The translations under genes and the position numbers were made by a program. 64,000 nt of DNA from Thozetella sp. PMI_491 (taxonomy: Eukaryota; Ascomycota; Sordariomycetes; Chaetosphaeriales; Chaetosphaeriaceae): positions 310,001 through 374,000 of the forward strand of contig MU270057.1 of assembly GCA_021432635.1 (NCBI GenBank), read 5' to 3'. Shown here piece after piece: positions 16,470-49,930 of the stretch. The stretch's first letter is position 1. Each line of letters begins with the position of its first letter. The notes under the pieces were generated by a model, which was not told where the DNA came from, did no database searches, and worked only from the letters and a program-made list of their open reading frames with translations.

Positions 16470-18100
16470 CTATACTACAATACCACCGTTTGTCTTGGGG
16501 TGGGATTGCTCCGTAGCAACTCTCGTCTCACGCTCTTCGCGGCCTTCACCCTTAGAGTCAAAGTATGCTAAAAAAAAAAAGGTATAAGTTTCCGATCATC
16601 TACGAATCGTGAAGCGTGGTACTCACGCTTTTCCCCAAATACAGTTGTCCGCACTCCTTGGCGACTACCGTTTGGGTACTTGCCAGGGATAGCACGATGG
16701 ATTGTACATCGGTTATCCCACATTGCAACTGACCCAACTGCCCACTTCCAGCGGACGAGATGATCATCTGCCGAGTGAATGTGGAAGTTGGCAAATTCAA
16801 GCAATTTATCTGTGCTGCCGTTAGGATATGTTCGTAAGAGCTTCCGTGGGAATCTCAGATACCAGACTCAGCCTTCTTAAGCTCTGGGAAGGCGGTTACG
16901 AAGCCTTCGTTGATATTTAGAGCATTGAGTCCCGTAACGGGGTGCGTACGGACAGCAGGATGATGCGTGTCAATTGGCGGTCGGCTAGGGCCCACACCCC
17001 AGAGATCGAGAATAGTATCGTCTAGTCAATGACTCTGTCAACTGCCTGCCCGAGGAAATACAGTAGAAAAAGTGCTTACATTGCAGTCGAGACGTATGAA
17101 CTGCGTGAAGTTTGTCGAAAAGCCTTTTGTATGTGTCGCTCAATGCATCGTATAGACCGTATTGGGAAACCTGCCATATTGGGTCTTATTATCACTTCAG
17201 CCGTACGAATGGATGACAGCACCGAATTCCTACCCATGCAGTATCGCCTCCTACAGGAGGATGATTTTCCATTCTGAGCATAGAGTAGGACGGCGCTAGA
17301 TTGTGTTAGCTCCCGAATATTACCAAGGATATAGTTAACACGCGATGTTTTATGTGAACACTTACGGTTAATCTCGAAGGACGTGTCCGCATGCCAGCCT
17401 ACTAATGGCTGTGGAAGAATAAGCCTTCAAACTTCCTAGAACTAGCCTAGACCTAGAAGCGCGGGAGTGCTATCATACCCACGGAGTGTACACTGCATCT
17501 TGCCGGTAGTCGGAAGTGCTTCCCTTGATGGTAATATGCTATTACCTTAGTCACAGATCTGTAGGGAGAAATCGGGGACGTGAACGAACCCGAACTTCCT
17601 GGGAAAGGTTAGTCCAAAGTATAGTGGTTAATGAGAGAGCGAAGTCATGCCTTTTGGACGGGATGTTTGTCCAGGATTCCAAAATGCTCGAAGATTTTGA
17701 CTTGTTGATCCGTGGTCAAATCTTGATCGCGAAAGAACACAACCCCTCGCTCAGAAACCAACAGTGCCAGTTCATCCAGTTGTTGCTCACTGAGCATCGA
17801 GAGTTGTACATCTTCCAGGAGGGTGCCAATAGATTCAGTTAGGTCGGTTCGCTTGGCTGTAGTGAAGAGAGCTTTCTTCTCTGGGTCAGCGAAGAATGCG
17901 CGGTCCTTGGGTGGCTCAATCGGCTCTCTGGTGGGCTCGAAGGGAACCCAGTTTTTTATCTTTGGATTGAAACTCTGCATATGTCTAAGTAGTAGGTTCC
18001 GCCATTAGCTCAAATGATTCGGCTGATCACTCACGGAATGAATGACTGTTGGATATCCCGAGTCTGGGGAGATGTGCTTGTGAGCTTCAAGAGTCGCCAT
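16470..18100 (-). CDS. TauD/TfdA-type Fe(II)/2-oxoglutarate dioxygenase
   Basis: Nine exons are inferred: 18035-18100, 17651-17974, 17479-17538, 17366-17408, 17234-17295, 17080-17170, 16863-17021, 16627-16809 and 16470-16567. They total 1086 bp and give 361 residues, the normal length for the family. The iron-binding triad is present: His156 and Asp158 in GWHADTSFE, and His306 in WDNRCTIHRA. Arg322 (RQGVRTTV) sits where 2-oxoglutarate is held. Other family stretches include ERGVVFFRDQDLT, GGDTAWVSQYGLYDALS and HAVHTSR. The intron at 17539-17650 fits best with a GC donor; all others are GT-AG. The family includes taurine and sulfonate oxygenases, xanthine dioxygenase and several natural-product tailoring enzymes. 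Its place beside the triterpene cluster makes a tailoring hydroxylation possible, which is inference. Confidence 0.85.
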
Positions 18101-19153: not shown

Positions 19154-20117
19154 CTAATTAAGGCCAGTGCCTCTAAATCCAATCCCTAGTACAAAGGCAG
19201 CCACTAAAACGGCACTCCCGCCTAGCCGCCTTAACCTGTTCTGCCTCTTCCGGCTCAGAAGTCGCTTCACGGCGAACAAAAACTCATGCTTGTCAAAAAC
19301 ACGAGGGAACTCGTGTTGCGGAACAGGCTTCTGCAGAAATTGGCAGAGCGGATTCCATCCTTCCCTGGCATTAAAGACAAGTAGTCTGCCTTTCGGTATT
19401 GCAACCTTCACGGACTCATTGTGTTCTTCGTACCATCTTTTCGTATCAACTTCATCGCTCCCATCAGGCACATACTCATACTGCTGGCGGATCATATTGA
19501 GGAATGGCGAGTATTCGTAGCCCCAGAGCCAACCAAGCGGCCACAGCCAGCGGAGGAGTGATAAGGTCGGTCTAACGCTACGGGCAACGAGTCCTACCGT
19601 ATCTCTGTAAGATACGTACCACACCTCTGGTGAGTCACGGACCGAAAGAATGAATTTCGCGTCGGGGTATGCTTCTGCGAGCTCGCGATAGAATAAGGCA
19701 CAAGGTACATCGGTGGCTGCCTGTGCTCGACACCGTTAGCTCTCTAATAAGACGTAGATAGATGTTGGGTTTGGCGGAAATATTCACATTGTAATCGCCC
19801 AATACATTGTCCCAGCGGCTCCTAGGGATAGACGTTTTGTCCCTGAATTTTTGATTGAGAAACTCGATCCATTTAAATGCATCTTCGGGTCTTTCAGTGG
19901 GGATGGTTCGTGTGTGGTATACTTTGGGATACCCGAGTTGAACCAAAGCTTGCTGGAGAGCTGGTCCATGGAGTAAGCAGATCAGTATGGTCCATCTTGG
20001 TTCAAAGTATGGGGATAAGGGATAAGTACACGAAGTTCCTGTTCTCCCAAGCCCAACAACTATGACTTCAAGCGGCCCTGGCTGGCCTTGGCTCTGAGAA
20101 AACGTCTTGTTCTCCAT
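19154..20117 (-). CDS. Sulfotransferase-like P-loop protein with C-terminal anchor
   Basis: Exons 20030-20117, 19788-19960 and 19154-19720 give 828 bp (275 residues). It belongs to the fungal sulfotransferase-4-like P-loop family, often mislabelled in databases as an NAD-dependent epimerase. Seen are VIVVGLGRTGTSS, the 5'-phosphosulfate-binding loop expected to hold PAPS, then LQQALVQLGYPKVYHT, the LAEAYPDAKFILSVRDSPEVWY core and the C-terminal EGWNPLCQFLQKPVP motif. The last ~20 residues are a hydrophobic helix (GSAVLVAAFVLGIGF), suggesting tail anchoring in a membrane. Its neighbours are oxygenases and, 6 kb away, the cyclase-glucosyltransferase gene, so sulfation of a hydroxylated terpenoid is a possible role. 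The family is clear; activity and substrate are not known. Confidence 0.8.
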
Positions 20118-20728: not shown

Positions 20729-22590
20729 ATGTCGTTGGTCGAACCGCTCTTGTCTGATGGGCTGATCGCGAAAGCGACAAGATCCGTATTCTTAGCAGCC
20801 GCTATTGCACTCACTATCACTTGGACCAGCTGGCTTTTTACCTCCTGGAAGTCATGGCGTGACCTGGCTGCTGCTGAGCGAGCGAAGCCTGGAGAGAAAC
20901 GCCCACCTACACTACCGTCCGCTGTCCCTCTTATTGGACACGTCTTTCAGTTCATGCAGGACGGACATGGCTTCATGTCAAATGCAGCGTAAGTATTCAT
21001 CTTAACTTGCCTTTCCCTCGAGGCGTTTAGTTAATATGTATATTGCGACAGGAGGTACTTTGGACGCGGCGTGCCTGTTCGCGTGAGCTTGCTCACGTTC
21101 CCCAGCTATATGATATCAGGATCCGAGAGTGTGTCCGCCTTTCTCAAAGACCAAAGGAAACAGTTGTCGAGAATTCCGCGCGGCCTCAACTACATGGAGT
21201 ATGCTTTTGGTTGCCCACGCGAGTTTCTTCATGAGTTTAAGCCGCGCAAAGAAGTTGAGATTGAGCAGCAGATCCACACGGCCATGCAGACTCTGCTGGC
21301 CGGTCCTGGACTTGAGGTTCTTGCCGACAGGTACCAGGAGGAAGTTGCACGACAAGCGCTTTCTTCTAAGCAAGTAAGCGATGGTGACGGATGGACTGAG
21401 ATTCCAGATCTCTGCGCGTTTGTTGAGAAGCACGTCCTTGAGGGGGCAACACGCGCCTTATACGGTCCGCATCTTCTGGAGTTAAATCCAAGTCTTGCGG
21501 ATGACTTCTGGGATTTCAACAGTCGTGTTAAATCTATGTTCATGGGCGTTCCCAAGTGGATGAACCCATCCGCCGTACGGGCGCGGGACAAGATGACAGC
21601 GAACGTCAGAAGGTGGCAGCGCTTCGCTGCCAAAGAGTGCGATATCAATGAAATTCCCGATGATGTCGAGTGGGAGCCGTACTACGGGAGCAAATTTACC
21701 AGAGTTCGCCAACAGCTACTCACTAAGCGCAACATTATGGATGAGAGGGCTCGAGCCGCCGAGAACCTTGCGTTCATATGGGCGTATGTTACTCATGTCT
21801 TGTTGCTACGGTGATGTTTTAGATTGACCTTGGCCATCAGCTAATGCCTTTGGAACCCAGGACAAATGCGAATTCGGTGCCGGCTGCCTGCTGGTTTCTC
21901 CTCGAAACCCTCCACGACCCCTCTCTATCGAAACGCGTCCAGATAATCCTAGATGAAGCCAGAATCAAGTCCATGGCAGGATCCAACACGACCTTTGAGT
22001 TTGATATTACCAAACTCACCTCGGATACTTTGCTGCAGTCTATTTTCGCTGAAATCCTCCGACTTCGTGTAGCCGCGCTGGTGGTACGCGAACCTACCAC
22101 GGCAGACTTTTCACTGCCCGGAGGGTGGCACATTAAACCTCATGAGACAGTTAGTATGTCTACCCGTACCGAACTCATGGATCCAGGTATCTGGAACGCT
22201 GGCGACGTCAATGATCCCCATCCCCTGGACCAATTTTGGGCCGAACGCTTCATTGTGTACCCCGATGACCCAAGTAGTGGGCCTCTCAAGGAGCCTAAAC
22301 ATCGCGTCAAATCTAGAATCAACGGCTCCACCCCAACGAAGAGCGAACCATTCTTTTCTCTTGATGGGTGCACATGGAGCTGGGTGCCTTTTGGTGGTGG
22401 ACGGCAGCTATGCCCCGGCCGCCACTTCGCTAAGCGCGAGATCTTGCTCACTGCAGCCATCTTCCTGACGGCCTTTGAGATTGAGCTTCTCACAGATACC
22501 CTCCCAATGCCAAACAAAGGATTCTATGGCTTTGGTACTTTGCCTCCAGATGGCAAGGTACCTTGCCGTATCCGTCGGCGGCATCACTAG
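20729..22590 (+). CDS. Cytochrome P450, CYP7-like
   Basis: Exons 20729-20988, 21052-21783 and 21861-22590 give 1722 bp (573 residues). An N-terminal membrane anchor (VFLAAAIALTITWTSWLF) is followed by a Pro-rich hinge (RPPTLPSAVPLIGHVFQF), so this is an ER-bound class II P450. The ExxR of the K-helix is in FAEILRLR, and the haem loop FGGGRQLCPGRHFAK places the axial ligand at Cys515. The I-helix stretch reads NANSVPAACWFL, in place of the usual acidic-Thr pair; this replacement of the oxygen-binding Thr by a Pro/Ala pair recalls CYP7/CYP8-like P450s. The general look is of fungal CYP7B-like oxysterol or steroid hydroxylases, fitting a triterpene or sterol substrate. The specific reaction is unknown. 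Confidence 0.88.
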
Positions 22591-23384: not shown

Positions 23385-25264
23385 CTACTGGGTGCTAGCT
23401 TTAACAATCTTTGATCTCCGGCGAATTTTAAGAGTGGCCCAAATTGGAGGCAATGCTGCATCTCCTAAAACAAAGGTCTCCGGCGATGGGCCAGTGCATT
23501 CCATATCATAATTAATCGTCATATAGGAAATTATCATCTTCAACATTAATACAGCAATCCAGCGCCCTGGGCTGGCAATGGGAAGTTAGCGTTCCTAGCT
23601 CAAGTTTTGCAAACAAGTCACATACTGAAAGGCTTTAATTGATTGGAATGTACTTACCAAGCATGTCGGCCGTAGCCAAATCCAAGATATGTAGTAGTTG
23701 GTTTGCCGGCTTCTGGCTCGTCCTCGTACGACGTAGTTAGACTTCCAGAAGCAGTCTCAGATTCGTAACGAGCAGAATTCTCTGAATTGTGCCTAGGCTT
23801 CTTTACGAAACGAAAAGGCTCATATGTCTGGGCATGATGATAGAATCTTTCGTCTTGATGAATGCCAAGCACGGGAACTCCAATCCAGCCGCCTCTGGGT
23901 ATGTGCGTACCGTCCGGGAGCTGGAGACCTGTTGGAGGAATCACCTCCTTTGTTAGTCCTTTAATGAGAATCGGGTGAAGACGAAGGCTTTCTCTAATAG
24001 CACTATCGGCCAAGGACTGCTTCCGGAAGGTTGAAGCTTTCTCCCAGCTTTGATCGTCGCCCTGGAGAGTCGCCTCAGCTTCAGCACGGAGTTGCTCAAA
24101 GGCATGAAGCTCAGGTGCGCAGTTGGCCAGGTCAATCAGGAGATTGGTTGATTGGATAATGGTCGAAGATGAACCAGCAAAGCCCTTTGTCAAACGAGGT
24201 TAGTGCTTTGTCCAGAGAATAGATTTGTATATACGGAAGGAGAACCTGCCAGCATCATTATCCACTCAGCTATTACCGCCGGAGAAACTTGGTTTCCGAT
24301 CCCGCCAACATCGTTCTTTTCAGAAAGCTTGGCACAGTGGCGGATGAAGTTAGATTTATCGTCAGCCTCATCGCCCTCCTTCGTCAGGTGTTGAGATAGC
24401 TGCGAATGCACTATGGGTGTCAGGATGTTCAGTGTTTTCTGGCGGTAATATGCTAGAGGCATCCTAACAAGGAATGCAACTACCCCTTTAAGTATGCGAG
24501 GTAGTTCACCGACGAAGATTGTGCATATGCCTAGAACCGTGAGGTACCGCTGAAAGGCGGTTAGCATGCGCGGATCAGCATCCACGCTCCCCAAAAAAAC
24601 TCGGCACAAAGTTGGGAAGACCACGTCCTGCATGCTGCTGTAGACATTAATCTCGCTCCATTCGTCTTTATTGGACGATTTATTAAACACTTTGTCAATG
24701 CGATACTGTAGCTCCCGGTATAGTATGCCTTGTAGCGCCTCTAGGTGTCGGTTCAAGCGGTCATTCGATATGTGTCGGATGAAGTGCGTGGTAGAGTCCA
24801 GCTCAAGGTCAGGACCAATGTGCAAATATCGCACTGCATGCCGCTCTTGTCGAACTCCATAGCTACTCAGCTTTGAATCAGGTTGTTCCGCAAACCATTT
24901 TATGTGCTCTACTGGAAGGAGCAGTTCTTGTTGTGCACTTGGGTCGTAGACAACAAAAGGCCGGCCGTGCTTGGCATACTAATCTGCTTTAGAGACTAAC
25001 AATTCCCTAAATGGTTCTGGAGAGCTTGATTCCTACCTTTTTGTAACCCTCCAGGAGTGTTGTGATGCCGTTCGTTAGCTGTCGGAAAGACGCCCGAGCT
25101 ATCCCAAGCGCCTCTTTGCGTACGCCCACAACAGGTAAAGTGTCGGGAAACGTTGCTTCATGCCGAAAGATTACTTTCACAGTAAATATGAAACTCAATC
25201 CAGATACCGCTATCAAAACAATTCCGGCAAGTTGTTGAATGACCATCATGATCCTGATTCTCAC
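23385..25264 (-). CDS. Cytochrome P450, ent-kaurene-oxidase-like
   Basis: Exons 25037-25264, 24235-24978, 23658-24184 and 23385-23571 give 1686 bp (561 residues). The N-terminus is a membrane anchor (LAGIVLIAVSGLSFIFTV). Other features are the I-helix region AGSSSTIIQSTNLLIDL, the K-helix ExxR in SAIRESLRLHP, and the haem loop FGYGRHACPGRW with Cys500. The haem motif is split by an intron immediately inside the Cys codon, a placement also seen in the P450 at 37123-39179. The style matches fungal terpenoid P450s of the ent-kaurene oxidase / CYP503-CYP68 type. It is transcribed divergently from the cyclase-glucosyltransferase gene across ~0.8 kb, good context for oxidising that enzyme's triterpene. 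Position of oxidation unknown. Confidence 0.88.
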
Positions 25265-26065: not shown

Positions 26066-29000
26066 ATGACGCAGCATCAACCTGACCACCCCAAAGAGGA
26101 TGAAATGGACAAACTTCAGCTAGAAGGCCGTCGTGCCATGCAGCAGGCTATCGACTTCTCATTCAGCTGTCAACAGCCTGACGGACACTGGGTAGCCCCT
26201 GTGTCGGCTGACGCGACCTTTACGGCACAGTATGTCATGTTCAAATACGCCATCGATGGGCTGTCACTGGCAGATGATGGCAAAGAGATCCAACGTTGGC
26301 TCCTGGGAAACCAGAATATCCACGATGGTTCCTGGAGCCTAGCTCCCGGTCTGCCAGGGAACTTATCCACAAGTGTAGAGGCATACCTCGCGCTGCGGAT
26401 CTTAGGCACACCGCTCTCTCACCCGGCTATGCAAAAGGGCCGAGCTTTTATTCTCGACCATGGCGGTGTTGCTGGTGTACGTTTCTTTACACGATTCTTC
26501 CTCGCCACTTTTGGTCTTTTCCCATGGAGCGTCATTCCCCAAATGCCAGCTGAACTCATCCTCATGCCCCACTGGCTTCCCTTAAATATTTATGTGCTCT
26601 CCTCATGGGCACGTAGCACTTTAATTCCTATTCTCGTTGTACGACACCATGAACCCGTATACGCACTTCCCAACGGTCTGAGTCCGGACAACAACTTTTT
26701 AGACGAGCTCTGGGTAAATCCGGCATCCAAAGAAATTCCCTATACACGCCCACTGTGGGACCTCCTCTTCGGGCGTGATCGTGACATCATCGAACTCCTG
26801 TTCACGCTGGCAGATAAAGCTCTAATCGGCATTGGCGGCCTGCGGCATGGGCCACTGCGTCAGTTAGCACTTCGCCGGTGTATTGAGTGGTTATTAGAGC
26901 ATCAAGAGGAGCAGGGCGACTGGGCCGGTTTCTTTCCCCCCATCCACGGCAGTGTCTGGGCGCTTCTCCTCGAAGGCTTCACACTGCGAGACGACAGAGT
27001 ACGCCTTGGGCTAGAAGCACTCGAGCGATTAGCTGTCAACGACGAGAGTGGAAAATGGCTTCAGTCGACAATATCGCCGTGCTGGGACACGGCGCTCATG
27101 GTCAAAGGGCTCTGCGATGTTGACCTATGTCGGCATGATACCCGCGTTTCTGCGGCAGTCGGTTGGCTTCACAAGCTACAGCTCATGGTTCCCCACGGAG
27201 ACTGGCGCATCTACAGCCCTAATCAGCAAGCAGGCGGCTGGAGCTTTCAGTACTACAATACGTGGTACCCAGACGTTGATGACGCCGCTGTTGTTGTCAT
27301 GGCGCTGGTGGGACACGATCCTGCTGCCATCGAGTCTCAACGAATCGAAATAGCTATTGAATGGATTCTGGGTATGCAGAATCATGACGGCGGCTGGGGG
27401 GCTTTCGACATAAACAACGACGCACGTTGGTTGCACAAAATTCCATTTAGCGATATGGACAGCCTTGTTGATCCGAGTACCTCTGATGTAACGGGTCGTA
27501 TGCTTGAATGCTTTGGACTCCTCCTGAATCATCGAAAAGACGGTCGACATCTTGACAAGGGTCTTGCCAGTCGTGTGAGAGAAGCGTGTAACAGGGCTCT
27601 GGCGTTTTTATGCAAAGAACAAGAGCCATCGGGGGCGTGGTGGGGACGTTGGGGAAGTAATTACAATTACGGCACAACCAACGTCCTTCGCGGCCTACGA
27701 GAGTTCTGCGATAAAAGCCCAAAGGGCGTTATTTACACGAAGTCTGCAATGCGGGCCGTGCTTTGGCTAGAGCGGTGCCAGAACGATGACGGTGGTTGGG
27801 GCGAAACTTTGATGTCCTACAACAACCCAGATTTAGCCGGCCTCGGCCCCAGTACGGCTGCCCACACATCCTGGGCTCTCGATTCCATACTACGCTTCCG
27901 ACCTCCTTCTCATTTAACAATTCAGAAAGGCATCCGCTGGCTCATAGACCAACAAAACCCCACTGGAGAAGAACAGCGTCACTGGTCCTCTTGGCCCTCA
28001 GACCTATACGTCGGCACTGGCTTCCCGAAAGTACTGTATCTTGGATACCCATTCTACCATCACCATTTTCCTATTTCCGCGCTGGCTAGATTTCTGGACT
28101 GCAGCAATTATCATTCATCATTCAGCCAAGATAAAAAGCCAACAGATCAACTACAAGAGTCACAACTCCTAAGACTAGATGTCGTCAAGAAACTACGGCG
28201 TCCTGACGTACTTCTCATGGTGCTTGGGAGTCGCGGGGACATCTATATGTTCATAAATATCGCCAAGAAGCTGCATCATTGCCGGGTACGCATCGCCACA
28301 CATCCGAAGCATCGCGATATCGTACAATCGCACGGCTTTGAGTTTTACAATGTTGGAGAGGATCCCGATGATGTTGCCCGAACTCTTGGGCAGGAACCAA
28401 ATTTGCTCCTAAGCATAGTTAAAGGAGATCTCACTAAGATGGGACGATCGCTCTGCCTGTCATTTGCAAGGTTTTGGCAGGCATGCTACGATATATCTGA
28501 GAATTCAGATGAGGAAAAGCATGTTAGCGAGCGTCCATTTTTGGCGGACGTGATCGTGTCAATCCCAGCCCTCACAGTACAGGTTCATGCGGCAGAGAGC
28601 TTGCAGGCTCCTCTTGTACTTGTCTCTGCCCAGCCGGTTCTACCCACGCGCGAGTTTCCCCATGTCTTCACTATGACAGAGCCGCGAATAACCCAGAGGG
28701 ATTGGTGGAACTATGCATCATACTTCTTCTTGGACCTTTTGTTAGTAGCCGGGGTGTCCGCTTTTTACAATATGTCTTGTCTAGAAGCTAACAGACACTT
28801 AGGCAATGGCTAATGTTGGGACGGTTCATCAACGATCTACGCACCAAACAATTTTCAATGCGACCCATGTGCTGGGTATGGGCAACGAAAGATTTCTTTC
28901 AGTCTCAGATACCACAGGCATGTCTATGGTCCTCTCACATACTCCCAAAACCAGCCGAATGGGACAGACATGAAGTGGTTATCGGTGGCTTTACAACCCT

Positions 29001-30078
29001 TGAGCTGGGCAGCAGCTATATGCCTCCAAACTCACTAGCTGCCTTCCTTAATACAGAGGAGCCTATCATTGCTATCAGCTTTGGATCCATGAACATTCCT
29101 AATCCTGTTTCGTTGATCCAGGCGGTGGCATCTGCCGCGGAAAGAGTTCGTGCCAAGATTGTCTTCAGCCGAAGCTGGTCCGCCAAGCTGGAACTAGGCC
29201 CTTCCGGACCGCTTCCGTCACACGTATACGTCATTGATACTGTTCCGCATGATTGGCTTCTGCCGCGCGTTAACGGTTTCGTCCACCACGGGGGTACCGG
29301 TCATATGGCGGCAGGCCTTCGTGCTGGCGTACCAATGCTAGTCATGCCATTCTATCTCGACCAGCATCTTTGGGCGGCAAAGTTGTCCCAGCTAGAATTG
29401 GGACCGCCTCCGCTCGAGTTGATGCGAGCTAACAACCAGGGAAAACCGATAGACGTGAATAAGCTTGCCGAAAGCTTGGAAATTTTATTGTCTGGGCGGT
29501 ACCGGGGACGATGCAGAGAGATGGCAACGCGAGTCCGTGCCGAAGGGGACGGTGCAACTGTTGCTGTTAACCTGATCGAGAGCCAGCTTGAGAAATCTCA
29601 AAATGGCATCGGGTCATGTGTGGTGATTCCAGAATTGCAAGCGCAGTGGGAACACACTGAGTCTGGATTGAGCCTGTCAGGCGCGGCCGCAGCAAGTCTC
29701 GTGGCATCTGGAGTCCTGGGCTGGGATGACTTCAAAAGCCAGCCTCGCATGGATTGGACCGCTCGGTGGCGAAATCAGACGCCCAAGTCACGCCTCCATA
29801 TGCTCTGCCATTTGGCGAATTGGCTTGTCTATGTGGTCCGCTTTATTTTCACTGTTCTTGGGCTTGTTTTGGGCACGCCCAGATGCAAAGCTAAGGCGGA
29901 GCTTGCAGATCCGATACAACAAGCTAGAATCAGAAAGAGTGTACTGGACCTCCAAATTGTCAGACAGGGCTTTGATGATAGAGGTACTGTCATCCTAGGC
30001 GAGGAACTTGCTAAAAGATGGCGGGCTATCACGGCAGATGAATTTAGCCGACGATGTGAGTTACTAAGTAGTATATAG
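26066..30078 (+). CDS. Chimeric triterpene cyclase-glucosyltransferase (EfuA-type)
   Basis: One gene of two exons, 26066-28744 and 28795-30078, 3963 bp (1320 residues). Residues ~10-680 form a squalene-hopene-cyclase-type class II terpene cyclase. They carry repeated QW motifs (QQPDGHW, QNHDGGWG, QNDDGGWGE) and a catalytic DVDDAA at 403-408 in place of the canonical DXDDTA. Residues ~715-1150 form a sterol-glucosyltransferase-like GT1 domain with SRGD at 722-725, PHDWLLP at ~1044, HHGGTGH at ~1057 and PFYLDQHLW ending the sugar-nucleotide site. A membrane-like segment follows near residue 1240 (LVYVVRFIFTVLGLVLG). The two halves lie in different frames; a 50-bp GT-AG intron (28745-28794) joins them in phase and restores the sterol-GT helix. 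Enfumafungin synthase EfuA has this same two-domain plan. Expected role: cyclise squalene and glucosylate the resulting hopane/fernane-type triterpene. Confidence 0.92.
28745..28794 (+). other. 50-bp intron linking the two domains
   Basis: Begins GTAGCC and ends GCTAACAG. Removing it joins ...YFFLDLLL to TLRQWLMLGRFINDLR, which lines up with the usual sterol-glucosyltransferase sequence (L-x-WQGLGDxINxFR). Without it the frame stops 15 codons later. The branch-like CTAAC sits unusually close to the acceptor, so transcript evidence would be decisive. Confidence 0.7.
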
Positions 30079-32805: not shown

Positions 32806-33587
32806 ATGAGAGATGAGCAACACCTAGAAGGAGACCAGTCCCGAAAACCACCAAGTTACCCGGATCTCGGAAATAGCTGGGGTATTGAGATCGTTCAGAG
32901 CCATGGACTTGAGGTGGTCTTCCATACCACGACTACATCTCGGTTTCCTGAAGTAGTTGCAGCGTCCGAGCTACAGACCGTCTATCCTGATTATCATGAA
33001 GAGAAGGAGGTTACTTTTCCCGAGCCACCGGAAAAGACGTACCCTCTATTGCTTCCTCGACTTTTCTTCCGAGCAATCGTCGGCTTTGCGATTGTTCTAT
33101 GCCTTGGACTTGGGTTGGGTATCGGACTTGGCATCGGGCTGAAGAATCGCGATTTTAACCTATCTAACAGTGCACCATCGTCATCTTATACGTCGACCTC
33201 AACTACGATAACTACCATGGCTTCCTTTAATTCAACAACGACATCAATGTCGATACCCACACAGACCATTCTGGACTATTCCGGCACTTGTAACGAGGGC
33301 ATCAACTACTGTGGTTGGTATCTGATGCAGAACGCCAGTAAGCAAAACGTTCCTAGCTTGACCAGTTGGATTCGAGAAAAATCAGACTTATGCGTATCTA
33401 TTTAGATTATACGCAAGCGAATCTTACCAGCGATGGAAGCAAAGATCCATTCAACGACTTGTTCTTATGCGGCAAGAACAATGCCCTCACCTTGAACCAG
33501 ACGTGTGGAGGGATGGACCACTGCCAGCCTCCAGACCATATCGGTGGAAATTGTAGCTTTGGACTTGGTCAGTCATGCTGTAGCTGA
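32806..33587 (+). CDS. Single-pass membrane protein with Cys-rich ectodomain
   Basis: Exons 32806-33337 and 33406-33587 give 714 bp (237 residues). There is no signal peptide. A ~75-residue Pro-rich cytoplasmic N-terminus (RKPPSYPDLG...) precedes one strongly hydrophobic Gly/Leu-rich helix at about 87-111 (AIVGFAIVLCLGLGLGIGLGIGL). A Ser/Thr-rich stalk then leads to a small Cys-rich outer domain (CNEGINYCGWYL ... CGGMDHCQPP ... GLGQSCCS). The layout is that of fungal type II cell-surface proteins related to those that carry lectin-like ectodomains. The join at 33338-33405 keeps frame and ends the protein in the typical CCS. Function unknown; it neighbours another membrane-anchored surface protein on the same strand. 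Confidence 0.65.
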
Positions 33588-33633
33588 CAGAGACTCTCTC
33601 ATGTGAATTATAATTGGCAGAGCAAGAGAAATA

Positions 33634-33669
33634 CACAGCAAAATATTGATGAGGTGCGCGCACGGAAGC
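33634..33669. repeat. Short dispersed repeat, copy A
   Basis: About 36 bp starting CACAGCAAAAT and containing GATGAGGTGCGCGCACGGAAGC, closely matched at 42003-42039. The other copy has TG where this one has CG, as RIP would give. Probably the end of a decayed transposable element. Confidence 0.5.
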
Positions 33670-34380
33670 CCACCTAGTTATGAACGCAGATAGCAGGTAG
33701 TCTGACTATATTAATCCCCCTCCGAGTCTACAAGAGTACTAGGGTATATGCAGATATTGCGTAAAGATATTTCAAGACGCTCCAACCAGTTTGAGCCGCG
33801 CTGTGCGTTCCTTTACATGGCCCTGGTTCGTAGTCTCAAGTGGCTCTCGAAGGTTATCCGCTTCAACAATTTGTGGTTCACAAAGGTTTTACCGCTGCGA
33901 ATTTAGATTCTTTTACAGCAAAGGTCAAGACTATCTACGTTCGGAAATCCAGCGACGTGGACTCCATCAACGCCCTTTGGACGTCTTAGTCCTGTTGAAA
34001 CTGTTAGGAGGGAGGACTCCTTGATAATTGTACCTCGACGCGCACGATACGGAACTGGAGTCCATGAAAACTAGAGACCAGTTGCACCAGATTTTCGTTC
34101 TCGTCTCTCGGCAAGTTTTTCACGAGCCCTCGGGGAAGCGCTCCTTTCTGGGCTAAAGCATTGTACGGAGTATAACAAAGATAGTAAGTGAGGTGGGTTA
34201 TCTGTTGTGCGGACCCACAGACCCAGCCACCCGGTTTCCCGTGCAGTTTAACCACTAACTAGAAGATGGACCCAGCTTCGGACCAAGCAGCACCTATGTC
34301 GGGAAATAATAATACTAAAGAAAGCGGGGCATTGTGGCATTTTGCCTTGCTACGGTATGCATCATATTTAGTCTAAGAAT

Positions 34381-34392
34381 CCCCCCCCCCCC
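34381..34392. repeat. Poly(C) tract
   Basis: Twelve consecutive C residues in the spacer. Simple homopolymer; length may be unreliable in sequencing. Confidence 0.8.
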
Positions 34393-34968
34393 ACGCCATA
34401 CTAACTATCAGCTTGAGCTTAAGCCCGAGCTGGCTGCTAGTGCGAAAGCTGTCTGCCAATCATGGATGCATCCCAATGGTTGGTCTGGGGAGCGTCCCCA
34501 CCCCCATTTTAAGGGTTGACTGGCAGTCCCGCTAGGACGAATCTGGCAGAGTTTCTCGATTTCAACCTTTTCCTCAATTTTTTTTTCCCTTCCTTCCCCT
34601 CCTCTTGCTCCTCAGCCCCGCTGGGTATCTCGCCTCTTTGTACCAAGCATGTTCACGCCGCACTGACTCATCCGAGCCTGTCTGCTTTACATGTCAACCG
34701 GTTTCCACCAATCGCGTGGGTTCTGCGGACCCTGGTGCAATTGCTAGTTGGTTCTTGCTAGGCCCTACTCCTTGCGTTAGGTCTGGGCTCGAATCCACCC
34801 AGCTTGCAGCAGTAGCGATATCTGCCGCCTCTCTCTGCATGAATTGGTAACCTTTTGTTACCCGTGGTGCTTGTTAGCAACATTCGAGACTTTGTCCTCC
34901 TTCAAAGTAACTGCCAGCCTGTTACTAGTGACGCATGGACTTGGCATTGGGGCCGCATAGCTATCCCG

Positions 34969-36654
34969 ATGGCCGTCCCGCTGTTCCGGTGGCAGGCAGT
35001 TTTGCTGGCTCTTGCCGGCATACAACCGGGTTGTACAGCGCATGCCATCTCTACTTGGTGGACGGTATACGGCTTTGGCCCCCAGCTACTAGTGCGCAAC
35101 GACACTACAGGCGAGTTTCGCTACAGCGACTGCAACAGCAATAACAATCCAATCTACTCATATGTGGGCGATAAGGTCTTAGACTTTAAGTATCCGCCCA
35201 GAAATGGCAGCGCATTTTCAGGTACGGGCTACGTATCAAACGGCAACGTGACAGTGTAAGCTCCCGAATCCGCCCTAGGCGTCCCAGCGCGCTCAGCACT
35301 TTGAAGCCCGATGCTGACTTGGACGTGTAGAGCCTCGATCTACTATCAAGGCAACAACGGCTCTATCTTCAACTCGCTTTATTCGTGTGACATGACGGCG
35401 GGTAAGTTTATTTTGACGTACAATGGATGTGCCAGCTTGGCAGCCCCGTCTATCCACAACGAAACAGGCATCTCGTCAATACTGCTGGGGTCCATTGCCG
35501 GGTACAGGACCTTCTACCACGATGAGAATATGGTCATCAACATGATTGGCTATGATTTTCAGTCCGGCTATCGGTACTTGGGCATCGTCGACAAGGATGT
35601 CCAAGAGTCGCGCACGTTAACGTCATGGTACATTGGCGTGGACCAGGGCATCTACGATGCCAACACGCAGAACATCACCGTCGCAACCCCTCGAGACAAC
35701 AAGACTATTGAGGTTATGCAATGGAATTCGGACAAGTCGTGGCACGTTTGTAAGCACAAACTCCTAGTCTCATGTGATGCACCGCTATCCAATACATGGG
35801 ACTGAGTATTGAATTCCCCTACTTTAGCAACATTTCCAGGGACCCTTACTAGTGAGCGCGTTAATTCTACCGCCAACGCGTCGGCCATATCTCCATCATC
35901 TGATCGACCGAGCTTTGAACTGCCAGCCTGGGACGGCCACCCGGCGGGCTTCGGGCTCAGTATGGACTACCTCAACAATCGTAACCTCTGGTACCTGGGT
36001 AACGACTCCAATTTATACCAAATCTACAGCCCTGCTACAGGCGGCTGGGCCTTGCAGACAAGGCAGCCAGCCGCCTTTTGGCCCGCGGCTGACCCGGGAT
36101 CTCCGCTTGGCATAATTCCAAATCCCAACACCGCTAACGTATGGATCTACTACCTCGTCGATGGCAAGCTCGGCTCGACCACATATGGATTCAACAATGA
36201 GAATTGGACGGAGTGGGCATCATTACAGACCGAATCTGCAGTGGGCTCATCATCCGGTCTTTCTGTAGCCGTCCGCGCTGGCATCGGTGTTAGCGCTGCT
36301 GTAGGTGGCCTACTGCTCACATGCGCCGCTTTTCTCCTCTGGTGGCGCCGCAAGAAGCGGAAGGAGCCCATCGACCGGCCACTCGCCGCAGCGGGAACCT
36401 CGTCGGCTGCGGGCAAAGCCGAGGAGACTGCAGATGGCAAAGGCACTCCACCCCTGGACGGAAACCATCTCATGCTAGCGCCGCAAGAAATGGAGGCACC
36501 GAAGGGATTGCACGAAGCTCCTGTGGACACGGATATATACGAGCTTCCGGCCATAGGAGACATTTATGAGCTTCCAGCTGGGACAAATACAGATGCAGCG
36601 TTAGACATACGAAATGAGGAATGTGAGAAAGCTGGGCAGGTTGCTGGGAGCTAA
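34969..36654 (+). CDS. Type I membrane protein with lectin-like propeller and YELPA tail
   Basis: Exons 34969-35255, 35331-35749 and 35828-36654 give 1533 bp (510 residues). A signal peptide (WQAVLLALAGIQPGCTAHA) is followed by a ~340-residue ectodomain of repeated strands with Trp/Tyr and sugar-site-like turns (LWYLGNDSNLYQIY, SIYYQGNNGSIFNS), resembling the fungal fucose-specific-lectin beta-propeller. Many N-glycosylation sequons are present. A single transmembrane helix (VSAAVGGLLLTCAAFLLWW) precedes RRKKRK and a ~110-residue cytoplasmic tail. The tail ends with two near-identical IYELPA units (DIYELPAIGDIYELPAG), a motif seen at the ends of several fungal surface receptors and sensors. 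Start chosen at the Met opening the signal peptide. Ligand and role unknown; the lectin assignment is tentative. Confidence 0.75.
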
Positions 36655-37122
36655 TCAGGCTATACAAATCTGATGAAGCATTACATCAGCGGCGATATCA
36701 GGTTAGCAGGAGACAGTTTACCCTTTAGGCGGTAGATATAATACTGTTCGCATAGGCTGTACGTACCCTCGCAGTCTCGCTAGTACAAGCAAACCTGTAG
36801 CTCGCACAGTGGATGCCGTATCCGATATCCTGGTCACATTCAGTATATCAAAAGATCGCATAGCAAAAGCTGGCCATTCCACTATCTTTGATGCTCGCCC
36901 CGATAGGCCTAGCTATTAGAGTTAACTTGGAACAGAATGAACGGCCTGTTGGCCACAATGCACGAGCTCCCCCAGCAATAGTTCTCTAAGCATCTGGGTA
37001 TTTATCCCCAGCTACCTAGGGTTTGAGATCATCCCGAATAAGTCTGGATAGGTCGTGACTTTCCGGCCCCTGGCGGTAAGACTTGCCAATCCTGCATTCT
37101 TAAACTAATATAACCCAAGTGG
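36655..37122. other. Convergent spacer
   Basis: Tail-to-tail spacer between the lectin-like gene and the P450. Nothing recognised. Confidence 0.5.
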
Positions 37123-39179
37123 CTAGGGACTGTGGTGTAGTTGGCTTGGAAGCGCTGTACGGACTAGTATTTTCAGCCTGGTCTCTGGAAGGAAAAACAT
37201 CGTAAAAATGGTCCGCTGCGGTTTCGTGTCCGGAATAAGTCTGATATCATATCTCTGTATCAGTTCAGCCAATATCAACTTCATCTCAGCTACAGCGAAG
37301 AATCTGCCTGGGCTTCTCATTGATTAGTAATAAAATTCCCCTCTCATCAATGATCTATATCGGTAAAGTCTACTCCGTAGGCTTGAGCTTACCATGCATG
37401 CCTGCCGTGGCCAAAAAAGGAGTGCTCCACTGACGTATTGATCATATATCTTTGGTTTTTCGGCCTTTGATTGAGAAACCGAAACCCATCGAATGTGTCA
37501 GGTTCATTATAGATCTCAGGGTCCCGCGTCAGGCTATAGTGTGTAGCGGCGATCATGACTCCGGGGGGGACCTCAGTGCCGTCGCTGAAGCGGAAGGGTT
37601 TCGCGACGAAGCGGTTCAAGGAATCTGTATGAGAAGGGAGCTGAGGTCAGTTTTTTTTTTTTATGCTGTTTGTAAAAAGTATTAGTTATCGTATATGTCT
37701 TAAGACGTACAGAATGCCATCGGAAAGTATCGTGCTGCTTCAAGAAAGAAGCTGTCCATCATCTTCAGCTGCCCAAGCGCCTGCTTCGTTATGTCATTCT
37801 CGCCGTTCGAGCCAAATATATGTGCGATTTCTTCTCGGAGTGGCTCCATATACTTTTCGTGCTCCGAAGCTAATTGGTAAACGATGCTCGACAACGTCTA
37901 GTCACGTTAGTCCTAGCTTTCTTTAGGCTGTACATGTCGTTTACCGTCAAAGTGGTATGAATCCCACCAAAATTTACCATCAAGATACCTGATATTACGC
38001 CTTGGAAGACGGCAAGGTGAGAAGGGCTATCTTGGATCAGCCATCGCATCATGTCGTCGTTGAGGACTTCGCCCCTTCTCGAGGCGTCCATAGAACGCCT
38101 GACGTAGGGTCCGAGGATCTCCTCCATATGCTTTCGACGTTTGTAGACCGGAGTCAACCGGAGGATCCAGCTATCCACGGGTAAGTCCGGATCGCAGCAG
38201 GAAGATATTTGCGGACTCACGGCTTGATAAATTCTGGAAACAATCGGATAACAGCCGATGAGATCAAAACGTCCCAAGTGAAAGCTATGGTGCTCTGGAG
38301 ATGCGCTTCATTATTGCCTGATACCTAGAGAGTTAGGGCTGTGATAAAGATGTCACAGGTGGAGATACGTGCTCAGCTCTGGGCCGAACATAGCCCTGTT
38401 CGTCACCTTAGCGATCGTCTTAGTGAGCACGTCGACAATTGAAACTTCGACCCAGTCTGTCTATGGTATGAGTACACCAGTTCGTGTAGATAGAAGGCCT
38501 CGTGACCAGCTTACTATCAGGCGCACCGATCTCCCGATCTAACGAAGCTCGAATTTCTTCCCTCATAGCTGGAATGCTACGGCCGATGTGTTGGGTCAGT
38601 TTTGTTCGCACTAGCGTCGCTGTCAAGGTCGAAGAGGCTAGCTCTCCAAATGTGTATTTCATCTGAGTGATCTAGCCCGTGTTAACCCAGTTAGTGGTAC
38701 CAGCCGTCGGAGCTTAGTAAACCGCAGTACTGAAGTCCACTGCTCGCAGACTTACATCATCCTGGCCTTTGCAGGCATCAATAACGTCTTCTGGCGCGTC
38801 TAGATACTCCACGACCTTGGCCCGGTCAGGGACCATGACCACCTCAGAGTCTAGTGTAGATATTCGAAAGCACGTCCCCTTGTGGTCAGAATACCCAGCA
38901 GACATGCATTCTACAGGGTATAGCAGGAATGCAATAGCGCCACACCATCGGCCGATAAAGTCGACCGGGACCGGCCCATACCCGATGCCTGTAATCTTAG
39001 ACTATAGTAGTGGGTTAGCTAGGGCATAAAACAAGGCACTCTTGAGCAATACCTACAGATGACGAGTATAGAAGGACCCTTGTTGCCGTAATTAGCGCCG
39101 CTGCCAGTCCAAGAAGCAGGGCCATTTGTGGCCAACCAGTGCTCCCAGGGAGCCATTCAAATAAGACCGATACCCCCAT
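37123..39179 (-). CDS. Cytochrome P450, ent-kaurene-oxidase-like (many introns)
   Basis: A full P450 spread over about ten short exons. The first is 39057-39179 (membrane anchor MALLLGLAAALITATRVLLY after a short lead), the second 38756-39001 (VPVDFIGRW ... CFRISTLDSEVVMVPD), and the last ends at 37123. Also seen are an exon reading WVEVSIVDVLTKTIAKVTNR, the I-helix region SGILMVNFGGIHTTLT, the K-helix ExxR in FFLEAARYFP, SLNRFVAKPF and FRFSDGTEVPPG. The haem loop FFGHGRHACPGRFFA is split by an intron inside the Cys codon. The closest look is fungal diterpenoid/triterpenoid P450s (CYP503/CYP68 type). One junction near 38310-38390 has no clean GT-AG solution in phase, so that join may be a GC donor or a real defect. 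It lies beside the FAD monooxygenase on the same strand. Confidence 0.8.
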
Positions 39180-40039: not shown

Positions 40040-41361
40040 TTAAGAATTAAGTAGCCCTTGGAATATTTCGACCGCTTCTGCCAGGTGGGCTTGTATATCC
40101 ATATTCCAGATCCGTCTCGGTTCTGTGTCCAATTCCTCTGCCACAACTTCAAGGTTGTCTCCACTGGTGGCGCCTTGAAAATCCATACGCTTTCCGTTCT
40201 CGAAACTCTTAGCGGCAACCTCTGAAGCTCGAGGAACTCGGACAAAGTCATATGCGGTCAGTGCCCGGGGCACATCTATTCTGGAGGAGCATTTCCCTAG
40301 GAGGGCCGAAAGAATATACGAGTCTTCAATCGCCATTCCGGCCCCTTGCCCAAAATGTGGCGACATTGCGTGGGCGGCATCTCCAAGGAGACATATCCGG
40401 CCTTTATGAAACGTTGGCACTCGGGGGTTTTCGAATATGGCCCAAATGTCTGGTTTGAGGAGCTATAAGATGGTGAGAAATATCCCGTGCTACCATACCC
40501 CTGGCAGTAACTCACCTTCATTATTTTCCTCACGCTCGATCCCCATTTAGATTCACTAAAATCCTTGTCGACATTTTCCGTCTGAGCTTGCTGAACCCAT
40601 TCGCCTTCCCATGTATCTGTAATACTGTCATGAAAAGCAACTACGTTCATGATCGCGCCACTGGCCACAGGGAAGGTTAAGACATGGCCGCCGTGGCCCA
40701 GGTACATGATTCGGTTGTTCGCATGTTCCTTGCCCAACGCCTTCTCGGCTATCTTCATCGGAATGAGACCTCGATAAGCAACCTTCTTGGTAAACCTCGG
40801 GACGACTAAGTTTGGATCGTCGAACACAAGTCCTCGGCAAGTGGATCGAATGCCGTCGCAGCCCACTACCAAGTCGACCAGGCGCTCGCTGCCGTCCGCA
40901 AAGCTGCAAACTATCTTCTCTCGGCTCTGATCAATAGATACCAACTTTTTGTTAAACTCGGTAACGTTGGATGGCAGTAGCTTCACCAATGCGTCTAGCA
41001 AGTGAACGCGATGAGAGCCACTCATTCCTTTTGCCTCGTCCATTTGCACCTCAATAATTCTCTTCCCTTCATTCTCACCTTTCTCCCCGCAGAGGAAATC
41101 AAACCATACGGTCTGCTTTGACTCCCAGCTATTGAATGCAGCTATTTTCAGATAGCTATCCCATATGCGCGGATCAATGAGACGCATGGCAGAGGGGGCA
41201 TTGGCGAAGAAACTCACGCCGGCGCCGATTTCGCCGTATGCACCCCGCGATTCGAAAATTGTAAAGATGGTGTGCTCGAATTTGGATAGAGCGATACCCA
41301 AGATCACGCCGCCGATGCCTCCACCTATAATCGCGATGTGAATCGGTTTCCGCTCCGCCAT
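40040..41361 (-). CDS. FAD-dependent monooxygenase (salicylate-hydroxylase-like)
   Basis: Exons 40516-41361 and 40040-40462 give 1269 bp (422 residues). It is a group A flavoprotein monooxygenase that uses NAD(P)H and O2 to hydroxylate or epoxidise. Seen are the N-terminal FAD dinucleotide motif (IIGGGIGGVILGIAL, Gly13-Gly18), the DG motif (LVVGCDGIRSTCR) that binds both FAD and NAD(P)H, and the second FAD motif (RICLLGDAAHAMSPHFGQGAG). The length and order are those of fungal salicylate-hydroxylase-like enzymes, which recur in terpenoid and polyketide clusters. It neighbours the P450 at 37123-39179 on the same strand and marks the right margin of the putative triterpenoid cluster. Substrate unknown. 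Confidence 0.9.
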
Positions 41362-42541
41362 GTCTAGTCTGTCAAGAAATCGCTCTCTAGTTTAGGTGGA
41401 AAGTAGTTTCACGGGGTGAGTGCGTCATTGAATAGGAGATAGATTATGTTTTCTAGCTCGGTTATCTCCAGACAGGCGATACGCTGCTTATTTAGATGTA
41501 ACCTAGATTTTGCTTTATAGCCGTGAGTGAATCCCACCCCCTCTCATGCAAGTAAGCTTACATCCTGTAGCACACGAGTATCTTGCTTGGCCAGCGGAAC
41601 AGGTTCTGCTGCAATGTCGGTAGTCGATATTGGGTGGCCAGCTTTCATATATATTGCTTAAGGTGTGTCGTACTATGACCGAGACTGCTGCAATATATTG
41701 AAAATGTGCATATAGGGTCCTACGGAAAAGAATGGTGTTAATACCAGTTTGAACGCCTTGATGGCTACAGTTCGCTTCAGACCTCCTTCCTATTTTGAAC
41801 TCTGCCTTCTCTGGAACCTTGGATGCACCGTTCGAGAAAACACCAAATCCAATACTCCTTTCTTCCGAGACTCTATCTAATAAAGGTAAGTCAGTTCCGT
41901 ATGGCGTTTACTCGCTGATATAAATAAGCATATTTAGCTCGCATAGCGTGCTAGCCTCGGCCTCTTAAGCGCCGCTATACGGCAAATGAACCAAGCAAAT
42001 CGCACAGCAAAATGATTTATGAGGTGTGTGCACGGAAGCGTTTTAATTATAATATCATATAATACATATTTTTCTAATATACAGACATTCTATTTTCCCC
42101 GCTTCTTAAGGCGTGCTTCGCTCGTAGCCCACGGCGCTACAAGCTTTGGTGGGACACTAGTTTCTCCTGCATAGATCGCATACTGAACTGCGGCCTGAGT
42201 AACCTTATATAGTTAAGTCGGATAAGTTAGTTTACGTATATATACCTTGGTAATCCTTTTAGTGCGCGTTTTTATTGATTTATTAATCATGGGCAGGGTT
42301 TCCGTATAGATTCTACTATGCAACTTCTATGTCTCCTGGCAATAGCCCTAGCCACGGTATATAACCCGTCACGATAGTAGTTCAACCTGTCGAGAAATTT
42401 CGCATAGCGGTTTAGTTTGTTAGATTTGGTACGAACATACTCAAGGAGCTTGACGGGTTATTCTGCGGTGATCTTGCTATTGGCTACCTAAACACTAATC
42501 AGTTATAAAAGAAACGAAGAGTCTTTCAAAAAATAAATAAA
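41362..42541. other. Gene-free, increasingly AT-rich flank of the retroelement
   Basis: Promoter side of the FAD monooxygenase, then AT-rich DNA with a copy of a dispersed repeat (42003-42039). The base change toward AT before the LTR suggests that RIP or an older degraded element reaches outside the retrotransposon. Confidence 0.5.
42003..42039. repeat. Short dispersed repeat, copy B
   Basis: GCACAGCAAAATGATTTATGA..GCACGGAAGC region matching 33634-33669 over ~36 bp with CG-to-TG differences and small indels. Likely the end of a decayed transposable element. Confidence 0.5.
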
Positions 42542-42546
42542 AGGAC
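42542..42546. repeat. Target-site duplication, left
   Basis: AGGAC directly before the 5' LTR; the same five bases follow the 3' LTR (49931-49935). This shows that the two LTRs bound one insertion. Confidence 0.9.
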
Positions 42547-42801
42547 TGTTGGATCGTGGGTTCGTAGCGTTGCTCGATCTAGTATGGAGGATCCAGAGCT
42601 CTGACGAGCTCTGATTGGACCACAGCCGATCTAGTGCAGAGAGTTACATGATTGGCTAAGGGCTATTTAGGGGCTCGTTCGAGCAGTCAACTTAGCTTAT
42701 AGAGAACACATCTAGACATATACCAATACAGAGGATCTTTTACCCAGTTGTTTTACGTTTATTTGTTTTACAGTACTAAGATCTTGTAATACTAACCAAC
42801 A
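42547..42801 (+). repeat. 5' long terminal repeat
   Basis: 255 bp, TGTTGG...CCAACA, matching the copy at 49676-49930 at about 94% with only transition differences. Orientation follows the internal order of coding traces. Confidence 0.93.
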
Positions 42802-49675: not shown

Positions 49676-49930
49676 TGTTAGATCGTGGGTTTATAGCGTT
49701 GCTCGATCTAGTATAGAGGATCCAGAGCTCTGACGAGCTCTGATTAGACCACAGCCGATCTAGTGCGGAGAGTCACATGATCGGCTGAGGGCCATTTAGG
49801 GGCTCGTTCGAGCAGTCAACTTAGCTTACAGAGAACACATCTAGACATATACCAATACAGAGGATCTTTTACCCAGTTGTTTTACATTTGTTTGTTTTAC
49901 AGTACCGAGATCTCGTAATACTAACCAACA
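49676..49930 (+). repeat. 3' long terminal repeat
   Basis: 255 bp copy of the LTR at 42547-42801, ending 34 bp before the aminopeptidase stop codon. Confidence 0.93.

What the first reader, a model, noticed from the sequence alone, without database searches (positions are those of the whole stretch)
26066..30078. EfuA-type cyclase-glucosyltransferase fusion at the heart of an oxygenase-rich region
The sequence shows a squalene-hopene-type cyclase (QW repeats, DVDD) fused to a sterol-glucosyltransferase-type domain (SRGD, HHGGTG, PF..DQ..W). Among known enzymes this plan is that of enfumafungin synthase, which makes the fernane-type glycoside scaffold of a glucan-synthase-inhibiting antifungal. 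Three P450s, a 2OG dioxygenase, an FAD monooxygenase and a sulfotransferase-like gene lie within 16.5-41.4 kb, suggesting a related but possibly new triterpenoid glycoside pathway.
Basis: partly seen in the sequence, partly recalled or inferred. Interest (0 to 1): 0.88.

Follow-up and report, generated by a model that had tools for sequence, protein, structure and literature searches.

The report
Fungal fused triterpene cyclase–glucosyltransferase
A fungal gene appears to encode one protein that both folds a C30 terpene precursor into rings and attaches a sugar to it, the same plan as the enzyme behind the antifungal enfumafungin, but its neighbouring genes differ and may point to a new compound.

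Summary
One predicted 62-nt intron (28741-28802) joins two overlapping ORFs into one 1,316-aa protein: a squalene-hopene-type cyclase (aa 23-677, DVDD kept), then a sterol-3-glucosyltransferase-type domain (aa 717-1165). The predicted cyclase fold matches A. acidocaldarius SHC (TMt 0.93), and the GT aligns to yeast sterol glucosyltransferase straight across the spliced junction. This is the plan of EfuA and FsoA, a published fusion family described as not rare: a new member of a known kind. No fungal sequences were available, so placement in the EfuA clade and the product are untested. Main difference: no acetyltransferase was found in the window, although the enfumafungin/fuscoatroside route acetylates 2-OH before 3-O-glucosylation. 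The sulfotransferase-like gene has no counterpart in the text I saw on known fernane clusters, whose full gene lists I did not see. Boldest reading not excluded: the two domains act consecutively here and the product is a sulfated, non-acetylated fernane glucoside.

The parts
26066..28740 (+). exon 1 of the fusion gene: whole cyclase domain, linker, first part of the glucosyltransferase
   Evidence: open frame; SQHop_cyclase_N/C and Glyco_transf_28; gene model
28741..28802 (+). predicted 62-nt intron, GTTAGT...GCTAAC...TTAG
   Evidence: UGT51 alignment of the spliced protein runs through the junction without a gap
28803..30078 (+). exon 2: rest of the glucosyltransferase and C-terminal tail
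   Evidence: EryCIII-like_C and UDPGT
26132..28096 (+). cyclase domain, aa 23-677
   Evidence: PDB 1gsz 6.2e-120; TIGR01507 568 bits, cut-off 431; predicted fold matches 2sqc, TMt 0.93
27272..27283 (+). DVDD, aa 403-406, catalytic-acid motif
   Evidence: aligns with SHC D374-D377
28097..28201 (+). linker, about 35 aa, between the two domains
   Evidence: between the aligned domain ends
29284..29301 (+). HHGGTG, sugar-donor-site motif of the glucosyltransferase (role recalled)
   Evidence: aligns with HHGGSG of sterol 3-beta-glucosyltransferase; position checked
29623..30075 (+). C-terminal tail of about 150 aa with a hydrophobic stretch
   Evidence: sequence reading; beyond the UGT51 match
16568..18100 (-). 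TauD-type Fe(II)/2-oxoglutarate dioxygenase, several introns, ends approximate
   Evidence: PF02668 8.7e-47 on a hand-joined model; HxD...H and R aligned with TauD
19154..20117 (-). Sulfotransfer_4 family protein
   Evidence: PF17784 1.4e-65; solved sulfotransferases, best 7.1e-27
20729..22590 (+). cytochrome P450 A, haem motif FGGGRQLCPGR
   Evidence: PF00067 7.1e-15 on the 3' piece; the 5' piece 21035-21811 alone had no Pfam match; splice options
23385..25249 (-). cytochrome P450 B, haem motif FGYGRHACPGR after splicing
   Evidence: PF00067 2.8e-14 on 23657-24199; the 5' piece 24193-24978 alone had no match
37100..39156 (-). cytochrome P450 C, haem motif FGHGRHACPGR, ends approximate
   Evidence: gene model, PF00067 9.2e-23
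40040..41361 (-). FAD-dependent monooxygenase, salicylate-hydroxylase-like
   Evidence: spliced model: PF01494 4.7e-14, 6bz5 2.6e-74; the unspliced ORF had no Pfam match

Best explanation
It is a bifunctional triterpene cyclase-glucosyltransferase of the EfuA/FsoA kind, core of a roughly 25-kb fungal gene cluster (about 16.5-41.4 kb). Shown by sequence or model: one spliceable protein; SHC-type cyclase fold with its DVDD acid; sterol-3-glucosyltransferase-type second domain; six linked tailoring-type genes. Inferred: the middle Asp of DVDD (aa 405) protonates the epoxide of 2,3-oxidosqualene, a cation cascade closes a pentacyclic fernane-type 3-alcohol, and the second domain moves glucose from UDP-glucose to 3-OH. 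The P450s, dioxygenase and FAD monooxygenase then oxidise the skeleton, and the sulfotransferase-like protein may sulfate it.
For: Splice and domains. Cyclase is SHC-type: hopene_cyclase model 568 bits (cut-off 431) against 231 bits (cut-off 851) for the oxidosqualene-cyclase model; 39% identity to A. acidocaldarius SHC; fold pLDDT 88.5, pTM 0.91, best PDB match 2sqc. GT: best solved relative sterol 3-beta-glucosyltransferase 5xvm, 3.4e-38. Neighbours. Published precedent: the EfuA cyclase domain makes fernenol and FsoA makes isomotiol and its glucoside (PMC12667498 introduction and sections 2.2-2.3); a TC-GT with FAD monooxygenase in H. rubiginosum (PMC8403587 passages).
Against: No fungal EfuA-type sequence could be compared, so 'fernane' rests on the domain plan alone. 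The efu, fso and H. rubiginosum clusters are reported with an acetyltransferase gene; none was found here. Two near-invariant SHC positions differ (I261 to F, F605 to L), so the product could be another pentacycle. Substrate is unproved: the cyclase scores as hopene cyclase, not as oxidosqualene cyclase. Even native EfuA gave no detectable glucoside in A. oryzae (PMC12667498 section 2.2). No expression data.
Confidence: 0.72

Rival explanations
1. The cyclase domain acts on squalene like bacterial SHC and makes a hopanoid or other 3-deoxy pentacycle; the GT then sugars an OH added later by a P450.
For: TIGR01507 hopene_cyclase above cut-off, OSC model far below; DVDD and most active-site residues shared with bacterial SHCs.
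Against: I261 (53 of 53) and F605 (51 of 53) are changed to F and L. The EfuA cyclase, described as SHC-derived with DXDD (PMC11371599 passages), makes fernenol, and the FsoA cyclase is reported to use 2,3-oxidosqualene (PMC12667498).
Confidence: 0.15
2. It is an ordinary enfumafungin/fuscoatroside-type pathway whose acetyltransferase lies elsewhere or was missed.
For: Same core: fusion, P450s and a 2-oxoglutarate oxygenase (the efu cluster has efuI; PMC12667498). Only 64 kb were visible, and genes can be unlinked.
Against: No acyltransferase family among the 35 entries given to Pfam (some overlap); no match to D[FW]G[WFYRKL]G in six frames of the window (a motif split by an intron would be missed); in 14-43 kb the segments scoring 10 or more are all assigned to a named gene except those of the 32.8-36.7 kb membrane-protein region, and a few segments of 7-9 remain.
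Confidence: 0.25
3. Two separate proteins, or a decayed gene: the TAA after aa 915 of ORF 1 is real and not spliced out.
For: Without splicing, ORF 1 stops at 28813 in the middle of the GT; nine intron choices restore the frame, so none is forced.
Against: ORF 1 already holds the GT N-terminal half and ORF 2 starts mid-domain, so neither would be a whole GT. The chosen intron has good signals and the UGT51 alignment runs straight through. Coding signal is strong on both sides.
Confidence: 0.04

Closest known systems
EfuA (enfumafungin synthase, Hormonema carpetanum) and EfmA
   Same: N-terminal SHC-type cyclase with DXDD fused to a sterol-GT-derived domain; cluster with P450s and a 2-oxoglutarate oxygenase (PMC12667498 sections 1 and 2.2, PMC11371599 passages)
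   Different: efu has acetyltransferase EfuH1; none found here. Sulfotransferase-like and FAD monooxygenase genes are not named for efu in the text I saw, but I did not see the full efu gene list (figures not held). Sequences not compared.
FsoA (fuscoatroside, Humicola fuscoatra)
   Same: TC-GT fusion with three P450 genes fsoB/D/E (PMC12667498 introduction)
   Different: fso has acetyltransferase fsoF and glucose oxidase fsoC, and no 2-oxoglutarate oxygenase is named; here TauD, FAD monooxygenase and Sulfotransfer_4 instead
Hypoxylon rubiginosum fernane-type cluster
   Same: fusion plus P450s plus FAD-dependent monooxygenase (PMC8403587 passages)
   Different: it has an acetyltransferase and an O-methyltransferase, neither found here; no dioxygenase is mentioned in the passages seen, and the word sulfotransferase does not occur in the main text
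Alicyclobacillus acidocaldarius squalene-hopene cyclase (2sqc, 1gsz)
   Same: fold, DVDD, most active-site aromatics; 39% identity
   Different: not fused; E45Q, I261F, Y420F, F605L here (E45Q and Y420F also occur in sampled bacterial SHCs)
Yeast sterol 3-beta-glucosyltransferase UGT51 (5xvm, 5gl5)
   Same: GT domain alignment over about 440 residues
   Different: solved chains carry no cyclase; different tail

Membership tests
EfuA/FsoA-type TC-GT fusion enzyme | SHC-type cyclase with DXDD at the N-terminus of the same polypeptide as a GT | tested here: met
   single polypeptide rests on a predicted intron, no RNA
EfuA/FsoA-type TC-GT fusion enzyme | GT of fungal sterol-GT type | tested here: met
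   best solved relative is yeast sterol 3-beta-glucosyltransferase, 3.4e-38; origin by phylogeny not tested
EfuA/FsoA-type TC-GT fusion enzyme | cyclase branches inside the fusion subclade with EfuA | not testable with these tools
   no fungal sequences held; one scan of the prokaryote genome collection with two peptide patterns gave 54 loci, all titled as bacterial
EfuA/FsoA-type TC-GT fusion enzyme | makes a fernane-type 3-alcohol from 2,3-oxidosqualene and glucosylates it | not testable with these tools
   needs expression
enfumafungin-type gene cluster | acetyltransferase (FsoF/EfuH1) for 2-OH | tested here: not met
   not found in the window; could lie outside; not a profile scan of every frame
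enfumafungin-type gene cluster | P450s for C2 hydroxylation and E-ring cleavage (FsoD, FsoE) | tested here: inconclusive
   three P450s nearby; FsoD and FsoE sequences not available
enfumafungin-type gene cluster (efu branch) | Fe(II)/2-oxoglutarate oxygenase like EfuI | tested here: inconclusive
   a TauD-type enzyme with metal ligands is present; EfuI sequence not available
bacterial squalene-hopene cyclase | hopene-cyclase model score and fold | tested here: met
   but it is fused, on a very long branch (2.0 against median 0.16) and nests in no sampled bacterial group, placement weakly supported

The most novel reading that the evidence does not exclude
In this cluster the fused domains work consecutively: the cyclase product is glucosylated directly at 3-OH with no 2-hydroxylation/acetylation detour, and the sulfotransferase-like protein adds a sulfate, giving a sulfated, non-acetylated fernane-type glucoside. 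That would supply the case missing from the published puzzle of why two domains that act non-consecutively are fused.
Probability: 0.17. Interest if true: 0.65.

Novelty: new member of a known kind. Interest (0 to 1): 0.4.

Why it matters
Enfumafungin gave the approved antifungal ibrexafungerp. A further fusion with a different tailoring set is a possible source of new analogues. It also offers a natural test of whether the GT domain needs a 2-acetylated substrate: FsoA makes a glucoside of unhydroxylated isomotiol, but with C2 hydroxylated it acted only on the acetylated form (PMC12667498 sections 2.2-2.3).

Tried and rejected
Idea that H451R marks an oxidosqualene cyclase: rejected, because 45 of 53 bacterial SHCs with a letter there also have R. 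C435S (A 36, N 7, C 6, S 4 of 53), Y420F (F 47 of 53) and E45Q (Q 6 of 54) are not distinctive either. I261F and F605L are 2 of 7 departures among 90 conserved columns. A median bacterial row departs at 1 and the largest at 15, so the window is not extreme overall.

Idea that bacteria carry the same fusion: the GT domain had only chance matches (E 4.9 and 7.8) in 54 SHC loci with up to 3 kb flanks. This was not a search for fusions in general.

Idea that the Sulfotransfer_4 protein might itself be a terpene cyclase (a relative is named SgdX2, 8y9p; the link to terpenes was only recalled): a search for SgdX2 matched unrelated strings (10 of 368 listed), and searches for sulfotransferase with terpene terms listed 2 and 7 papers, of which I opened one for its sulfotransferase passages. 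Nothing useful; left open.

Human lanosterol synthase did not align over SHC position 261, so no claim is made there. tRNA scan: none. Taxonomy of the fungus was not pursued: no genome is held for the window.

Full report
Observation. They are in different frames and ORF 1 ends (TAA) inside the glucosyltransferase, so the gene is a fusion only if an intron is removed. Intron 28741-28802 has a GTTAGT donor and a GCTAAC branch site ten bases before the acceptor, and it gives one 1,316-aa frame; eight other listed GT...AG pairs also restore the frame. A gene model scoring codon usage and splice signals chose the same intron. That model also called two further introns near the 3' end that are not needed for the frame and that I do not adopt. 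The alignment to yeast sterol 3-beta-glucosyltransferase (5xvm) passes through the joined residues without a gap. No RNA was available.

Cyclase domain. Residues 23-677 match squalene-hopene cyclase 1gsz at 6.2e-120 and human lanosterol synthase at about 2e-31. The NCBIfam hopene-cyclase model gives 568 bits (cut-off 431), while the oxidosqualene-cyclase model gives 231 bits (cut-off 851). An AlphaFold2 model using 38 bacterial rows has mean pLDDT 88.5 and pTM 0.91, and its best solved match is 2sqc, TM-score 0.93 by target length and 0.85 by query length, rmsd 2.6. DVDD and most active-site aromatics are kept.

Comparison with bacteria. One scan of prokaryote genomes with two peptide patterns gave 54 loci that encode relatives. 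L053 is partial and was left out of the counts. In a 55-row tree the window protein sits on an end branch of 2.0 (median 0.16), with weakly supported placement (90/74), inside no bacterial group. It departs from 7 of 90 conserved bacterial columns (median bacterial row 1, largest 15); among the seven, I261F (I in 53 of 53) and F605L (F in 51 of 53) are the ones I recall as active-site positions of SHC. Human lanosterol synthase also lacks Phe at the 605 position (Cys in the alignment). This fits a product other than hopene but does not identify it. My first idea, that Arg at position 451 marks an oxidosqualene cyclase, failed: 45 of 53 bacterial enzymes have it.

Glucosyltransferase domain. 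Residues 717-1165 match UGT51, with GSRGD, HHGGTG and PFYLDQ. NCBIfam models of bacterial glycosyltransferases match only far below their cut-offs. A tail of about 150 aa with a hydrophobic stretch follows.

Neighbourhood. Minus strand 16.57-18.10 kb: TauD-type dioxygenase, PF02668 8.7e-47, with HxD, distal H and R aligned to TauD; my model of it is hand-joined and probably lacks an exon. Minus 19.15-20.12 kb: Sulfotransfer_4, 1.4e-65, solved sulfotransferases 7.1e-27. Plus 20.73-22.59 kb, minus 23.39-25.25 kb and minus 37.10-39.16 kb: P450s with complete haem motifs after splicing; the 5' pieces of the first two had no Pfam match on their own. Minus 40.04-41.36 kb: FAD monooxygenase. Right of it lies an AT-rich, RIP-like stretch of about 43-49.5 kb, then a family M1 aminopeptidase. 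On the left an HSP20 gene lies at 13.9-14.6 kb, and the next coding segment above threshold begins at 16.86 kb. The limits 16.5-41.4 kb are an inference.

Missing gene. I looked for an acetyltransferase because known enfumafungin-type pathways need one. None of 35 entries given to Pfam (10, 10, 5 and 10; some overlap) hit an acyltransferase family, and the pattern D[FW]G[WFYRKL]G does not occur in six frames of the window.

Literature. EfuA was found by Kuhnert et al. 2018 (not held; known here through later papers). Passages of PMC9476466 say that a subclade with EfuA holds further fusions from unrelated fungi, 'not rare'. Passages of PMC8403587 describe a fusion cluster in H. rubiginosum with two P450s, an acetyltransferase, an O-methyltransferase and an FAD monooxygenase. 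PMC12667498 (introduction and sections 2.2-2.3 read) reports: EfuA cyclase domain makes fernenol; FsoA makes isomotiol and its glucoside; when C2 is hydroxylated by FsoD, the GT acts only after 2-O-acetylation by FsoF; EfuI, a 2-oxoglutarate oxygenase, forms the hemiacetal; native EfuA gave no detectable glucoside in A. oryzae. The authors ask why domains that act non-consecutively are fused.

Interpretation. The enzyme works like EfuA/FsoA and meets the testable parts of the definition of the fusion family. As seen in this window the cluster is not a complete enfumafungin-type cluster, because the acetyltransferase was not found. The simplest reading is a related fernane-type glucoside pathway with a different set of tailoring enzymes. 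The bolder reading is direct consecutive cyclisation-glucosylation with a sulfated end product. Neither product is shown. The word sulfotransferase does not occur in the held main text of PMC12667498, PMC8403587, PMC9476466 (first 300,000 characters) or PMC11371599, and a five-term search listed two papers, one opened, whose sulfotransferase passages concern phenolic polyketides. I did not see the full efu gene list, so this is not proof that such a gene is absent from known clusters or from print.

Verdict. Real, well formed, and a new member of a published kind, with a testable difference in the surrounding genes.

Noticed in passing
42000-49900: AT-rich stretch (GC 0.21-0.35 in 43.0-49.5 kb) with TpA/ApT up to 1.98 and (CpA+TpG)/(ApC+GpT) down to 0.18 per 500 bases, as in repeat-induced point mutation (recalled signature). 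In 43.0-48.4 kb G (790) exceeds C (520), so the change looks strand-biased, which would be unusual for RIP. By eye it resembles a Copia-type element; not tested.
   Followed up: partly
32806-36654: One or two genes for a membrane-anchored, secreted-type protein (strong coding segments; by eye transmembrane stretches, Ser/Thr-rich and Cys-rich parts) with no Pfam match for the pieces tried. It lies inside the putative cluster; a cell-wall-type protein (EfuJ) was proposed as a resistance factor in efu (PMC9476466 passage).
   Followed up: partly
55507-57217: A fourth P450 (PF00067 3.9e-54; model), beyond the AT-rich stretch.
   Followed up: no
4251-5723: Fungal_trans_2 transcription-factor domain (1.6e-9) with a Zn_clus hit just under its cut-off; a possible regulator.
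   Followed up: no
58273-59914: By eye a second Zn2Cys6-type regulator; the three pieces given to Pfam had no match.
   Followed up: no
7139-8608: Carboxylesterase family gene (COesterase 5e-50).
   Followed up: no
54231-54566: Cytochrome b5-like domain, 31 residues, 1.6e-6.
   Followed up: no
845-2261: Amidohydrolase-like gene in several exons (Amidohydro_2, below its cut-off in both pieces; model).
   Followed up: no
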